Assembly: GCF_018881965.1 (NCBI RefSeq)
Contig: NZ_JACVPI010000001.1
Span: forward strand, 564,018-628,017
Reading direction: 5' to 3'
DNA from: Polynucleobacter sp. JS-Polo-80-F4
GTDB taxonomy: Bacteria; Pseudomonadota; Gammaproteobacteria; Burkholderiales; Burkholderiaceae
Length of the DNA: 64,000 nt
The notes under the pieces were generated by a model, which did no database searches, was not told the DNA's origin, and worked only from the letters and a program-made list of their open reading frames with translations. Positions 13,192-17,697 of the stretch are shown piece by piece (positions within the stretch are counted from its first letter, which is position 1; each line of letters begins with the position of its first letter). Position numbers and translations under genes: made by a program.

Positions 13192-13482
13192 TTACTTCTG
13201 TACAACAGCCATGATGTCGTCTTCACGCATCACGATGAGTTCTTCATTGTCAACTTTTACTGTTTGACCTGCATATTTACCAAACAACACACGGTCGCCT
13301 ACTTTGACGTCAGGTGCATTTAATTTACCGCTGTCATCGCGCTTGCCTGGTCCTACTGCCAAAACTTCACCTTGATCAGGCTTTTCTGCGGCAGCGTCAG
13401 GAATGATGATTCCGGAAGCAGTTTTTGATTCTTGATCTAAACGCTTGACGATTACGCGATCATGTAAGGGACGCAAATTCAT
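13192..13482 (-). CDS. groES: Co-chaperonin GroES (10 kDa)
   Basis: Lid of the GroEL folding chamber. The 96-residue protein has the usual start [12 protein letters not shown], a mobile loop (around residues 17-33, [17 protein letters not shown]) that binds GroEL, and a closing strand ending [11 protein letters not shown]. It is the first gene of the groES-groEL operon; its promoter and CIRCE operator lie about 110-165 bases upstream. Confidence 0.99.
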
Positions 13483-13591
13483 CTCTTCTCCTATGTTAGT
13501 AAGTGTTAACTATTTAAATAAACTATATAAATCAATGCTTTGTAATCTCTTCACACGGCAGCCAAGGGTTATTTACGGATAAATTGCCTCT

Positions 13592-13618
13592 TTAGCACTC
13601 GCATGCAGGGAGTGCTGA
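13592..13618 (-). promoter_or_regulatory. CIRCE operator (HrcA binding site) of groESL
   Basis: Inverted repeat TTAGCACTC - nine bases - GAGTGCTGA, matching the CIRCE consensus TTAGCACTC-N9-GAGTGCTAA with one changed base. It sits directly downstream of the minus-strand -10 box, where bound HrcA repressor would block transcription. HrcA itself is not in the window. Confidence 0.95.
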
Positions 13619-13647
13619 TTATATAGGTCTGAATGCCCAGATTTCAA
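13618..13647 (-). promoter_or_regulatory. groESL promoter (sigma70 type)
   Basis: On the minus strand TTGAAA is followed 18 bases later by a perfect TATAAT, which abuts CIRCE. The -35 region reads CCTTGAAA, which also resembles a sigma32 -35 element, but no CCCCAT-type -10 follows at the right spacing. This points to housekeeping transcription under HrcA control. Confidence 0.85.
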
Positions 13648-13688
13648 GGGCGGATCTCCATAAATTCTTTAAGGAATTAGCCTCTATC

Positions 13689-13792
13689 TATACTTTGGAC
13701 AGGCTGGTAGGACTATTCCTACAGATAAATCAGCCTAAAGCCCTTACCGCTCCAATCTGTCCTGCCTAGACTGGACAGTCACCGATTGGAGA
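13689..13792 (+). promoter_or_regulatory. Probable -10 box and structured 5' leader of the Bvg-like locus
   Basis: TATACT at 13689-13694 is a likely -10 box; the -35 is poor. If used, the leader is about 100 bases long and holds two nested inverted repeats. The first is AGGCTG (13701) with GTAGGA-CTAT-TCCTAC (13707-13722) and CAGCCT (13731-13736). The second has outer arms TCCAATC (13751-13757) and GATTGGA (13784-13790) around inner arms CTGTCC (13757-13762) and GGACAG (13773-13778). The outer 3' arm runs into the GGAG ribosome-binding site of the next gene. Regulation by structure is inferred. Confidence 0.5.
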
Positions 13793-13798
13793 ATGCTG

Positions 13799-14641
13799 AT
13801 GAGCCCGAAATCCCGGCTGTACACGCTTGTAAAGGCATGGAAGAACAAACCCTTCCAAGAAGTACGAGACGCCTGTGGCGACCCCTGGCTTGGCCTGAGT
13901 AACCAAGCCCTTGAAGAACACCAATCGTGGTCCAAGCGACAAGTGATTAGTCATGAACCCATTTTTAACTGCAAGGGAACAAAACTGACAGGATCTTTAT
14001 TTAGACCACTTCTTACTGCGTCCGATATGCAATTACTACGCCTTTTTATGGAAGGCTTAGACACTATCGCGTATTGGTATCGCAGCGGTAGATTTATTCC
14101 AGGAATTTTGCCAGTGCCGGCACATGCCTTAGCTTCAAGTGGCTATGTCGATGCCATGAGTGAACTCATTTTGAACTCACGTCTACCGGTGGGCTTGGTC
14201 AGCATTGGCATACAAACAATTCCTGAGTCTGCAATAGCAGATGCTTTTAAAGAAGGATTGTTACGCTTACGTCGCCTTGGTGTCTTACTGCACTTCCTCA
14301 AATTCACAGGCAGCATTGAAGAGATTCGGTGGATCACTGAGATGCAATTAGAGGGCGTACATATTGATATGAGTCAGATACGCGAGCACGAACTGGCAGG
14401 CGATGTTCTTTCTCAACTCAGGCAATCGCCGTATTCACCGACACAAATTTATGCCAGCAATATCGGGTTGGTAAGGGATCTAGAAAACGCCTCCACTCTC
14501 ATCGCTGATCATTCCTATGGAGGCCTCATGATGTCGCCCGTCAGCCGCCATCAGATGCTACAGATTAGCGATAGTCGTATCGCTAAAGCCATTTTTTCGC
14601 TGCACCCTCATCAACACCCAAACCAAAACGGAGATAAGTAA
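13799..14641 (+). CDS. Degenerate EAL-like domain protein upstream of a Bvg-type two-component system
   Basis: About 280 residues with the layout of a c-di-GMP phosphodiesterase EAL domain but without its catalytic residues. The segment HEPIFNCKGTKLTGSLFRPLL aligns with the EAL-motif strand (E replaced), LPVPAHALA with the VNxS strand, GVLLHFLKFTGS with the DDFGTGYS loop (both aspartates gone) and EGVHIDMSQI with the KID strand. I read it as a non-enzymatic EAL relative, possibly a binding or signalling partner. The ATG at 13799 has GGAG seven bases upstream; the ATG at 13793 is too close to it. It overlaps the regulator gene by one base (TAATG). Family assignment is by eye. Confidence 0.6.
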   Translation: MSPKSRLYTLVKAWKNKPFQEVRDACGDPWLGLSNQALEEHQSWSKRQVISHEPIFNCKGTKLTGSLFRPLLTASDMQLLRLFMEGLDTIAYWYRSGRFIPGILPVPAHALASSGYVDAMSELILNSRLPVGLVSIGIQTIPESAIADAFKEGLLRLRRLGVLLHFLKFTGSIEEIRWITEMQLEGVHIDMSQIREHELAGDVLSQLRQSPYSPTQIYASNIGLVRDLENASTLIADHSYGGLMMSPVSRHQMLQISDSRIAKAIFSLHPHQHPNQNGDK

Positions 14642-15264
14642 TGAGAAAACGCGTGATGTTGGTAGATGACCATCCAGCAATGCTGATGGCTCTTAAAAGT
14701 ATGTTGCAAGATCAGTTGTTATTTGAAATTGCAGGGCAAGCTCAGAATGGGGAGGAGTGCCTCAGATCGATGAAAGAGGTTAATCCCAATATGGTGATTC
14801 TAGATCTAGATATGCCCAAGACCGATGGCTTTGACGTCATACGTCGCATCGGATTAATGTACCCCGAAGTTCGCATGCTCGTTCTATCTAGTATGGATGA
14901 AGCAGTTTACGGCGGGAGAGTTCGCTCATTAGGTGGGCACGGCTTTGTAAACAAAACTGCTGGGGCAGATGTGATCTTAGCTGCGTGTGTTGCTATCTCT
15001 CAAGGCTACAACTTTTTCACTCATGGCAAAAATGGTAATAGTTCATTAACCGATAACGATAAGCTCGCCTTAATTTCTGATCGCGAATTACAAGTTATGA
15101 AATACCTTGGCAAAGGCAATACCAATCAACAGATTTCTGACATGTTGCATATCAGCAATAAGACGGTGGCAACTTACAAGACTAGGGTATTTGACAAGTT
15201 AGGGATTAACAACATTGCTGATCTCATTTTGTTCTGTCGTATGAACAACATTATCGAAAGCTAA
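14641..15264 (+). CDS. LuxR/NarL-family response regulator (BvgA/EvgA-like)
   Basis: A two-domain transcription factor of 207 residues. The receiver has the acidic pair D9-D10 (LVDDHP), the phospho-acceptor Asp55 in VILDLDMPKTDG, and Lys in FVNKTAG. The C-terminal LuxR-type helix-turn-helix (about residues 137-200) holds LISDRELQVMKYLGKGNTNQQISDMLHISNKTVATYKTRVFDKLGI. This is the architecture of BvgA and EvgA. The next gene encodes a hybrid kinase with an Hpt domain seven bases away, so it is the expected output of that phosphorelay. Targets are unknown. Confidence 0.9.
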   Translation: MRKRVMLVDDHPAMLMALKSMLQDQLLFEIAGQAQNGEECLRSMKEVNPNMVILDLDMPKTDGFDVIRRIGLMYPEVRMLVLSSMDEAVYGGRVRSLGGHGFVNKTAGADVILAACVAISQGYNFFTHGKNGNSSLTDNDKLALISDRELQVMKYLGKGNTNQQISDMLHISNKTVATYKTRVFDKLGINNIADLILFCRMNNIIES

Positions 15265-15270
15265 GTAGAA

Positions 15271-17697
15271 ATGCATCGATCCATCACTCGCATTACCCTC
15301 TTTGTCATATTGAATGGCCTTTTGGGTAGCGTTTCTGCCAAATTGCTTAGCTCAACAGAGCAAGAGTGGATCGATGCCCATCCTGTAGTGCGTTTTAGCA
15401 TTCATGAGAAATATGCTCCCTATCTAGACGCCAATGAAAATGGTCAGTCCGGAGTCTTTCACAGTCTCTTGAATAAGTTAGGTGAATTTACCAAGCAAGA
15501 ATTTCTTCCAAAATGGCGCAAGAGCGATCAAGAAGGGCTTGATCAGATTGCTAACGGGGAGGTCGATTTCATGATTGATCCACCTACCTTGGAGGATGAG
15601 CACCTCAAGTTTGGCTCATTATCGGAAGCAATCTTTTGGGGTCACGATGCCATTCTGACCAAGCGATCAAAGAACGATGTACCTATTGAACCAATCAATA
15701 TTGCTTACTTTGATCGTGGTTTTGAAAACCCGCCGACACCAAATAACCTCCAAGCTAGTGTTTCTGATCATGTTGATAAGTTGGTCTTTGATCTTCTCAA
15801 AAATGATGTTCAAGCACTTGTCTTGCCACTTCGCTTAGCGCAAAAACTGATTCAGAAATTGAATGGCGATAATCTACAGGTTGATGGACTGTACCGTAGA
15901 GAACCATTTGAATATCGCTGGTTTATTTCCCATCAAGATGAGGCTTTGCATGGTGTGCTTGGGCACTTTCTTAAAAACCTAGACCCAATCGCATCTCGTC
16001 AACTGTTTAATCTCAATGCATCTACTCTTGAGGCAGAACCCTCTGCTGTATCAAACTCAATATCCTGGCTTTCTACTTTAGGAGTCCTATTCATTGGTGC
16101 CTATTGGTTATGGCGCATGCATCAAAAGCAATCCCTTCAAAAACAAGAAGCGGATATTTTGACGTCATCAAAAGAGCAGGCCGAGCATGCAAATGCTGCG
16201 AAGTCCGCCTTCCTTGCCACCATGAGCCATGAGATTCGAACACCAATGAATGCAATTTTAGGTGTCCAGGAATTATTACTCAAAAGCCCTCTTCCCGAAA
16301 ATGAAAAAACTTTATTGAAGAGCGCACACTCATCAGCAGAATCTCTGCTGGGAATCCTAAATCAAGTTCTGGATCTATCAAAGATAGAGGCTGGCAAGCT
16401 CACACTTAATATTGAACCCTGTAATCTCATTGCCTTGATTGATGACATCGATGCAGCATTCTCAACCGTTGCTCATAAACAGAATCTCAAACTACGTACC
16501 TCAAAAGACCCGCGTATTGCTGCAGTATTGATGCTAGATACCCTGCGCTTACGTCAAATACTACAAAACCTCATTAGTAACGCCATCAAATTTACCAATC
16601 AAGGTGAGATTTATTTCTCAATCAGCGTCTTAGCAGATGATCATGCGGGACAGCTGATTGAATTCAGAATCATTGACACGGGGGTTGGGATGGGAGCGGA
16701 GGAAATTACCCTTGCGCTGCAAGCCTTTGAGCAAATACCTGGTACTACAGAACAAGCAAATGGAACTGGTCTTGGTTTAACCATCACCAACCATCTTGTC
16801 ACCTCCATGAATAGCCAACTCTATTTTGAAAGTTCTCCTGGCTATGGAAGTAATATCCATTTTTGCCTTGCATTTCCGCGTACTAGTATTGCTGCAACCA
16901 GAACTTCAGCTCCAGAACAAACCAATACTCCTAGAAAGCTAGTATCTAAACATGCCCAAAGTAGTGAACATCCATTGCAAGCTTTAGTGGTCGAGGATCA
17001 TCCCGCCAGCCGTCAAATTATTTCCCTCCAACTACAGGCCCTAGGCATCGAGTCATCAGTTTGCGATAACGCCACTACCGCCCTAGATCTCATTAACCAA
17101 AAACATTTTGATCTACTTTTAACCGATCAATCCATCCCCGGAATGCAGGGCTCTGAACTTGCCAAGTATCTACGCGATAAGGGGCATCAAGATCTCATCA
17201 TTATTGGAATTACTGCGGATATCTATGCCCTAGACTCACGCCATCAATTTTTGACTGCCGGCATGAATGGGGTTCTCATAAAGCCGTTAAGCCTGATGGC
17301 CTTAGAAAATGAACTCTCGCGTTATTTCCAAACTAAAGAATCCACTGAAACCACAACAGGCAATCAGGATTTGGAGGAGTATTCATTTACCGCCTTTGGG
17401 AATCTTCTTAAAAATAGCCCTGAATACATTCAGCTCATCCTAGATGAAATTAAAAAGGTTCATGATGAGACCCTTCTTGTCTTAAGGAATGAAACGGTAG
17501 ATGAAGCCAGTTTCAGAAGCATGGTCCATAAAGTGAAAGGTGGGGCTCAGCTTCTTAATGCTGAAAAATTTTCTAAGGCCTGCCAGGATCTCGAACACGA
17601 CGGGGATCTAGGCAACCGAACTGCTTCTTTTATCCAATTACTTGAAGAGCAAAATCAAATGATAAGTAGGCATAAATCTCGATATTCAAAGCTTTAA
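15271..17697 (+). CDS. BvgS/EvgS-like hybrid sensor histidine kinase
   Basis: An 808-residue inner-membrane phosphorelay kinase. Order: signal/anchor helix (about 7-23); one periplasmic solute-binding-type (venus-flytrap) domain (about 30-250) with the start LSSTEQEWIDAHPVVRFSIH typical of BvgS-type sensors; transmembrane helix (about 264-282); HisKA with His320 in MSHEIRTPMNAIL; HATPase with NLISNAIKF, IDTGVGM and NGTGLGLTI; receiver with Asp619 in LLLTDQSIPGMQG; and Hpt with His753 in MVHKVKGGAQ. BvgS has two flytrap domains and a PAS domain; this protein has one flytrap and no room for PAS (about 35 residues before HisKA). It should pass phosphate to the regulator at 14641. Confidence 0.92.
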   Translation: MHRSITRITLFVILNGLLGSVSAKLLSSTEQEWIDAHPVVRFSIHEKYAPYLDANENGQSGVFHSLLNKLGEFTKQEFLPKWRKSDQEGLDQIANGEVDFMIDPPTLEDEHLKFGSLSEAIFWGHDAILTKRSKNDVPIEPINIAYFDRGFENPPTPNNLQASVSDHVDKLVFDLLKNDVQALVLPLRLAQKLIQKLNGDNLQVDGLYRREPFEYRWFISHQDEALHGVLGHFLKNLDPIASRQLFNLNASTLEAEPSAVSNSISWLSTLGVLFIGAYWLWRMHQKQSLQKQEADILTSSKEQAEHANAAKSAFLATMSHEIRTPMNAILGVQELLLKSPLPENEKTLLKSAHSSAESLLGILNQVLDLSKIEAGKLTLNIEPCNLIALIDDIDAAFSTVAHKQNLKLRTSKDPRIAAVLMLDTLRLRQILQNLISNAIKFTNQGEIYFSISVLADDHAGQLIEFRIIDTGVGMGAEEITLALQAFEQIPGTTEQANGTGLGLTITNHLVTSMNSQLYFESSPGYGSNIHFCLAFPRTSIAATRTSAPEQTNTPRKLVSKHAQSSEHPLQALVVEDHPASRQIISLQLQALGIESSVCDNATTALDLINQKHFDLLLTDQSIPGMQGSELAKYLRDKGHQDLIIIGITADIYALDSRHQFLTAGMNGVLIKPLSLMALENELSRYFQTKESTETTTGNQDLEEYSFTAFGNLLKNSPEYIQLILDEIKKVHDETLLVLRNETVDEASFRSMVHKVKGGAQLLNAEKFSKACQDLEHDGDLGNRTASFIQLLEEQNQMISRHKSRYSKL

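What the first reader, a model, noticed from the sequence alone, without database searches (positions are those of the whole stretch)
13799..17697. Bvg/Evg-type phosphorelay with a catalytically dead EAL-like protein as first gene
Three tightly packed genes (one-base overlap, then seven bases) encode an EAL-like protein lacking the E-A-L, DDFGTG and Asn residues, a LuxR-type regulator with Asp55 and an intact hybrid kinase (His320, Asp619, His753). In Bordetella the bvgAS locus neighbours bvgR, an EAL-domain gene, so an EAL relative beside a Bvg system has a precedent. Here, however, it is the promoter-proximal gene of the same transcript and the catalytic residues are absent, so it may be a partner or sensor rather than a phosphodiesterase. 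The kinase also has only one flytrap domain and no PAS domain, so its signalling logic should differ from BvgS.
Basis: partly seen in the sequence, partly recalled or inferred. Interest (0 to 1): 0.7.

Follow-up and report, generated by a model that had tools for sequence, protein, structure and literature searches.

The report
Bvg-like relay with dead EAL partner
In freshwater Polynucleobacter bacteria, a protein that looks like a signal-degrading enzyme but has lost its active site is inherited and lost together with a Bordetella-like sensing relay, and it stays even in species that seem unable to make the signal, so it probably works by touching other proteins.

Summary

The three genes behave as a unit in Polynucleobacter. 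The EAL-like gene is in 138 of 145 genomes. Eight genomes without it lack recognisable orthologues of the regulator and kinase too. It is in 39 of 41 genomes with no detectable GGDEF domain and in 99 of 104 with one, so its retention does not track c-di-GMP synthesis. Deep clades lost the kinase flytrap but kept the EAL-like gene.

RocSAR and YdiV are further precedents. Best reading: a c-di-GMP-independent, protein-binding component of this phosphorelay. Binding is inferred, not shown. New variant of a known kind.

The parts
13707..13722 (.). Dyad GTAGGACTATTCCTAC, candidate operator of the regulator (an RNA hairpin is not excluded)
   Evidence: Found in 104 of 120 distinct leaders, at -90 to -101 from the start codon, with listed variants allowed; exact pattern occurs once in G000. 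Binding is inferred.
13744..13772 (+). Candidate promoter TTACCG-17-TAGACT
   Evidence: Read from sequence and conserved in alignment A5. The consensus scan did not list it; start site not mapped.
13799..14641 (+). EAL-like gene (P0001, 280 aa), catalytically dead EAL fold
14641..15264 (+). LuxR-type response regulator (P0002, 207 aa), D55
15271..17697 (+). Hybrid kinase (P0003, 808 aa): one flytrap, HisKA H320, HATPase, REC D619, Hpt H753

Best explanation
The three genes are one signalling unit. Shown by computation: a BvgS-like kinase with one periplasmic flytrap and a complete H-D-H relay; a phosphorylatable LuxR-type regulator; and an EAL-fold protein without its catalytic residues that is under purifying selection, is inherited and lost with the other two, and is kept in species without a detectable GGDEF domain. 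Inferred: the EAL-like protein acts by protein contact, most likely on the neighbouring regulator and less likely on the kinase, setting how much regulator is free or phosphorylated, much as YdiV binds FlhDC. The shared stop/start base would couple its translation to that of the regulator, and the dyad in the leader would let the regulator control its own operon.
For: EAL fold with dead site. Order EAL-RR-HK in 35 of 35 wide loci. Eight of eight genomes without the EAL-like gene lack orthologues of the regulator and kinase. Present in 39 of 41 genus genomes without GGDEF and 99 of 104 with. One-base overlap with the regulator in 75 of 143 loci, redundant loci included. dN/dS 0.117. Relay residues kept throughout. 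In 14 deep-clade loci the kinase has no room for a flytrap while the EAL-like gene stays. YdiV precedent (PMC3510510, passages; PMC10333796, passages).
Against: No interaction data. Linkage and co-loss would also fit an output effector. The EAL-like protein evolves much faster than the regulator (dN/dS 0.117 against 0.009). In deep clades the overlap with the regulator is absent. Mapped pocket positions are not clearly more conserved than the rest of the barrel (p 0.076, in which the two AEGVE positions were mis-indexed).
Confidence: 0.5

Rival explanations
1. Output effector, like BvgR: made under control of the regulator, the EAL-like protein binds another regulator elsewhere and not its own relay.
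For: BvgR is BvgA-activated and dead (PMC12805831, passages; PMC11537037). A dyad lies upstream of the operon.
Against: It is the first gene of the same tight operon and overlaps the regulator gene in the window's clade. It is kept when the kinase loses its sensor.
Confidence: 0.27
2. Non-catalytic c-di-GMP receptor that passes c-di-GMP levels to the relay.
For: Dead EAL domains can still bind c-di-GMP, and this is proposed for BvgR. G000 has three GGDEF domains.
Against: Substrate Gln and Arg positions are E53 and L71, kept in 4 and 0 of 74 members (these two aligned by eye). Retained in 39 of 41 genomes without GGDEF.
Confidence: 0.06
3. Active phosphodiesterase, or an unrelated passenger gene that merely sits in the operon.
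For: Public records name close relatives 'diguanylate phosphodiesterase'.
Against: Co-loss in 8 of 8 genomes, conserved order, absent catalytic residues.
Confidence: 0.05

Closest known systems
BvgASR of Bordetella (BvgR)
   Same: Bvg-type kinase with flytrap (fold match), LuxR-type regulator, dead class III EAL protein near the system (PMC11537037)
   Different: Here the EAL-like gene is first in the same operon; one flytrap and no PAS (BvgS has two flytraps and a PAS, recalled); BvgR keeps the substrate Gln, P0001 does not
RocS1-RocA1-RocR of Pseudomonas aeruginosa
   Same: Unorthodox kinase, transcription regulator and EAL protein as further component (PMC12051241, Introduction); RocR is among the closest folds
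   Different: RocR is an active phosphodiesterase and a response regulator with its own receiver domain; P0001 has neither receiver family nor catalytic residues
YdiV of Escherichia coli and Salmonella
   Same: Stand-alone EAL fold, no catalysis, 8 of 10 residues lost; acts by binding a regulator (PMC3510510, passages)
   Different: YdiV is not part of a two-component operon (recalled); target here unknown
EvgAS of Escherichia coli
   Same: Best NCBIfam model of the regulator is EvgA, below its cut-off; the EvgS periplasmic domain is a top fold match
   Different: No linked EAL protein and two flytraps in EvgS (both recalled)
VieSAB of Vibrio cholerae
   Same: Kinase operon that includes an EAL protein (recalled)
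   Different: VieA is an active enzyme with receiver and HTH domains (recalled)

Membership tests
EAL domain superfamily | EAL TIM-barrel fold | tested here: met
EAL domain superfamily | Score over Pfam PF00563 cut-off | tested here: not met
   P0001 has no Pfam match at E<=1; G000 has no PF00563 match. Many deep-clade relatives carry PF00563 as a precomputed label.
c-di-GMP phosphodiesterase | Catalytic Glu, Asn, DD, Lys, Gln present | tested here: not met
c-di-GMP receptor | Binds c-di-GMP | not testable with these tools
   Contact residues are replaced, which makes it unlikely
BvgAS/EvgAS-type phosphorelay | Flytrap, HisKA, HATPase, REC, Hpt in one kinase; LuxR-type regulator with Asp | tested here: met
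   Hpt scores 22.2 bits, just below its cut-off of 24.6
BvgAS/EvgAS-type phosphorelay | Two flytraps, and PAS in BvgS (recalled) | tested here: not met
   One flytrap; no PAS
BvgR | Common descent with BvgR | not tested
   No BvgR sequence was fetched
YdiV-like anti-regulators | Binding to a transcription regulator | not testable with these tools
   Needs two-hybrid or pull-down

The most novel reading that the evidence does not exclude
A whole genus carries a three-component phosphorelay in which an EAL-fold protein, stripped of c-di-GMP chemistry, is an obligate protein partner of the relay and, in deep clades, may have taken over input after the kinase lost its flytrap. It would be a free-living, GGDEF-independent counterpart of BvgR.
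Probability: 0.4. Interest if true: 0.68.

Novelty: new variant of a known kind. Interest (0 to 1): 0.5.

Why it matters
How a dead EAL protein works beside a Bvg system is an open question for BvgR: purification failed and a c-di-GMP effector role is proposed. Polynucleobacter offers natural genomes with such a protein and no detectable GGDEF domain, a setting that separates protein contact from c-di-GMP. It also suggests that the public name 'diguanylate phosphodiesterase' for close relatives misleads.

Tried and rejected
Active phosphodiesterase: rejected on residues.

Structured RNA leader: unproven. For: the +strand stretch 13739-13868 folds better than all 200 shuffles (z -2.93), and pair measures exceed most shuffles. 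Against: shorter stretches that start near the candidate start site give z -1.21, -1.32 and 0.35; only 65.2% of cells pair in the outer stem of the dyad hairpin; the double changes are few, and relatedness can give such excess. Rfam gave one chance-level match (E 1.7) in 13400-15000.

Regulon by motif: sites in G005, G009 and G008 lie beside varied genes; no regulon claimed. Only 37 genomes were scanned for the exact pattern, 19 with a match.

Internal stops reported for relatives: in G072, G138, G140, G144 and G156 the first stop is at codons 271-280. Real early breaks: G001 (codon 60), G119 (71), G139 (about 191), G023, G017, G082, G083, G086 and G096. In G151 the gene is split over two contigs.

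Relatives outside the genus: 17 of 246 non-genus genomes of the order gave weak, partial hits (E 5e-14 to 5e-4) in frames of 273-1098 aa, read as general EAL similarity. Their neighbourhoods were not inspected, so a similar trio there is not excluded.

Print: 'Polynucleobacter' with 'EAL domain' gave 0 papers; with 'two-component' 30 papers, ten listed, listing seen only; with 'diguanylate' or 'c-di-GMP', ten listed plus passages of PMC2408644. Nothing on this locus was seen. The library is open-access only. Searches were seen as listings, apart from the papers cited.

mis-indexed the two AEGVE positions; one search corrected the residue counts, but the conservation test was not rerun.

Full report
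What is there. The window is from a Polynucleobacter genome (named relatives). Divergent from groESL lie an EAL-like gene (13799-14641), a LuxR-type regulator (14641-15264) and a hybrid kinase (15271-17697), followed by a dacB-like gene (groESL and dacB named from sequence, recalled). The first two share one base; six bases separate the second and third.

The relay. H320, D619 and H753 are kept in 114, 115 and 115 of 115 distinct kinases and D55 in 96 of 96 regulators. The model of kinase residues 1-290 has the BvgS periplasmic domain as best PDB row.

Distribution. P0001 alone finds 36 of 37 genus genomes and 0 of 24 others. The family profile finds 138 of 145 genus genomes at least 90% complete. 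In 250 genomes of the order only the four genus members are strong hits; 17 others are weak. In 35 wide loci the order EAL-RR-HK holds in 35; within the stretches fetched, groES is found in 29 and dacB in 31.

A unit of inheritance. The seven genus genomes without the gene, and G022, have no regulator orthologue: the best-scoring matches have at most 32% identity, with short HTH pieces up to 38%. They have no kinase orthologue either: matches of 22-40% identity, none covering flytrap or Hpt, and none at all in G163. G022 and G163 are fragmented drafts. In G095, groES and dacB remain close, with one small gene between that looks HU-like (recalled). In five others with groES found, the flank differs. 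So more than one loss pattern exists, but independent losses were not counted on a tree. In decayed genomes (G017, G082, G083, G086, G096) both the EAL-like and kinase genes are broken, while the regulator is intact in G017, G083 and G086, broken in G082 and not found in G096. In G023 and G139 the EAL-like gene alone is broken, so it can be lost first; G119 and G001 also have an early stop.

Not tied to c-di-GMP. GGDEF is found in 104 of 145 genus genomes (the same search rang in 8 of 14 named control genomes). The EAL-like gene is in 39 of the 41 without and 99 of the 104 with. Of the 39, two have an early break (G001, G086). The ten single-contig genomes among the 41 carry the gene, broken in G086. 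G000 itself has three GGDEF domains and no Pfam EAL match. Synthesis of c-di-GMP by an undetected route is not excluded.

Selection. Median dN/dS among 12 close species (11 for groES and kinase): EAL-like 0.117 (66 pairs), regulator 0.009 (27), flytrap 0.109 (9), kinase core 0.034 (10), Hpt 0.258 (12), groES 0.051 (55). Pairs with dS outside 0.1-2 were dropped, which leaves few for some regions.

Sensor loss. In 14 deep-clade loci the kinase has 130 or fewer residues before its core, 11 of them with a hydrophobic segment, and the EAL-like gene is kept. Starts were taken at the first Met of the frame, which may shorten some (L072, L101, L107). L219 and the L241-L242 and L244-L246 group have a shortened flytrap.

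Leader. A dyad GTAGGNNNNTTCCTAC (variants allowed) lies at -90 to -101 in 104 of 120 distinct leaders; the 16 without come from deep clades. Downstream lies TTACCG-17-TAGACT. BvgA promoters also use an upstream inverted heptad and a poor -35 (PMC7250471, passages). That the regulator binds here is inference.

Comparison with the known. BvgR lacks 12 of 13 residues and is not replaced by an active phosphodiesterase (PMC11537037, section read); its mechanism is open (PMC12805831, passages). RocSAR has an active EAL regulator as further component (PMC12051241, abstract and Introduction). YdiV shows the contact mechanism (PMC3510510, passages). The window system works most like a BvgASR with a YdiV-like part. 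Descent from BvgR was not tested.

Verdict. Real, conserved within one genus, and a new variant of a known kind. The mechanism is inferred.

Noticed in passing
window 13739-14008: The start of the EAL-like gene is frozen at the DNA level: codon identity given the same residue is 0.98 and 0.90 in codons 1-10 and 11-20, and 0.64-0.79 to codon 70, against 0.55 overall. groES, groEL and the regulator also show raised values at their first 10 codons (0.88-0.92), so part of it is ordinary.
   Followed up: partly
window 13593-13617: AGCACTC-N9-GAGTGCT inverted repeat before groES, like a CIRCE element (recalled), beside a strong reverse-strand promoter TTGAAA-18-TATAAT at 13647-13618.
   Followed up: no
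window 17410-17640: The Hpt part of the kinase evolves fastest (dN/dS 0.258), although its His is invariant in 115 of 115.
   Followed up: no
window 14565-14586: Terminator-like hairpin TTAGCGATA/TATCGCTAA before a T run inside the 3' end of the EAL-like gene; conservation of the pairing was not counted.
   Followed up: no
L062, L087, L088: In G017, G083 and G086 the EAL-like and kinase genes are broken but the regulator is intact at 93-98% identity. L225, titled P. necessarius, also lacks a full kinase frame after its regulator.
   Followed up: partly
L067, L068: About 1.4 kb lies between groES and the EAL-like gene in G025 and G003, against about 0.3 kb elsewhere.
   Followed up: no
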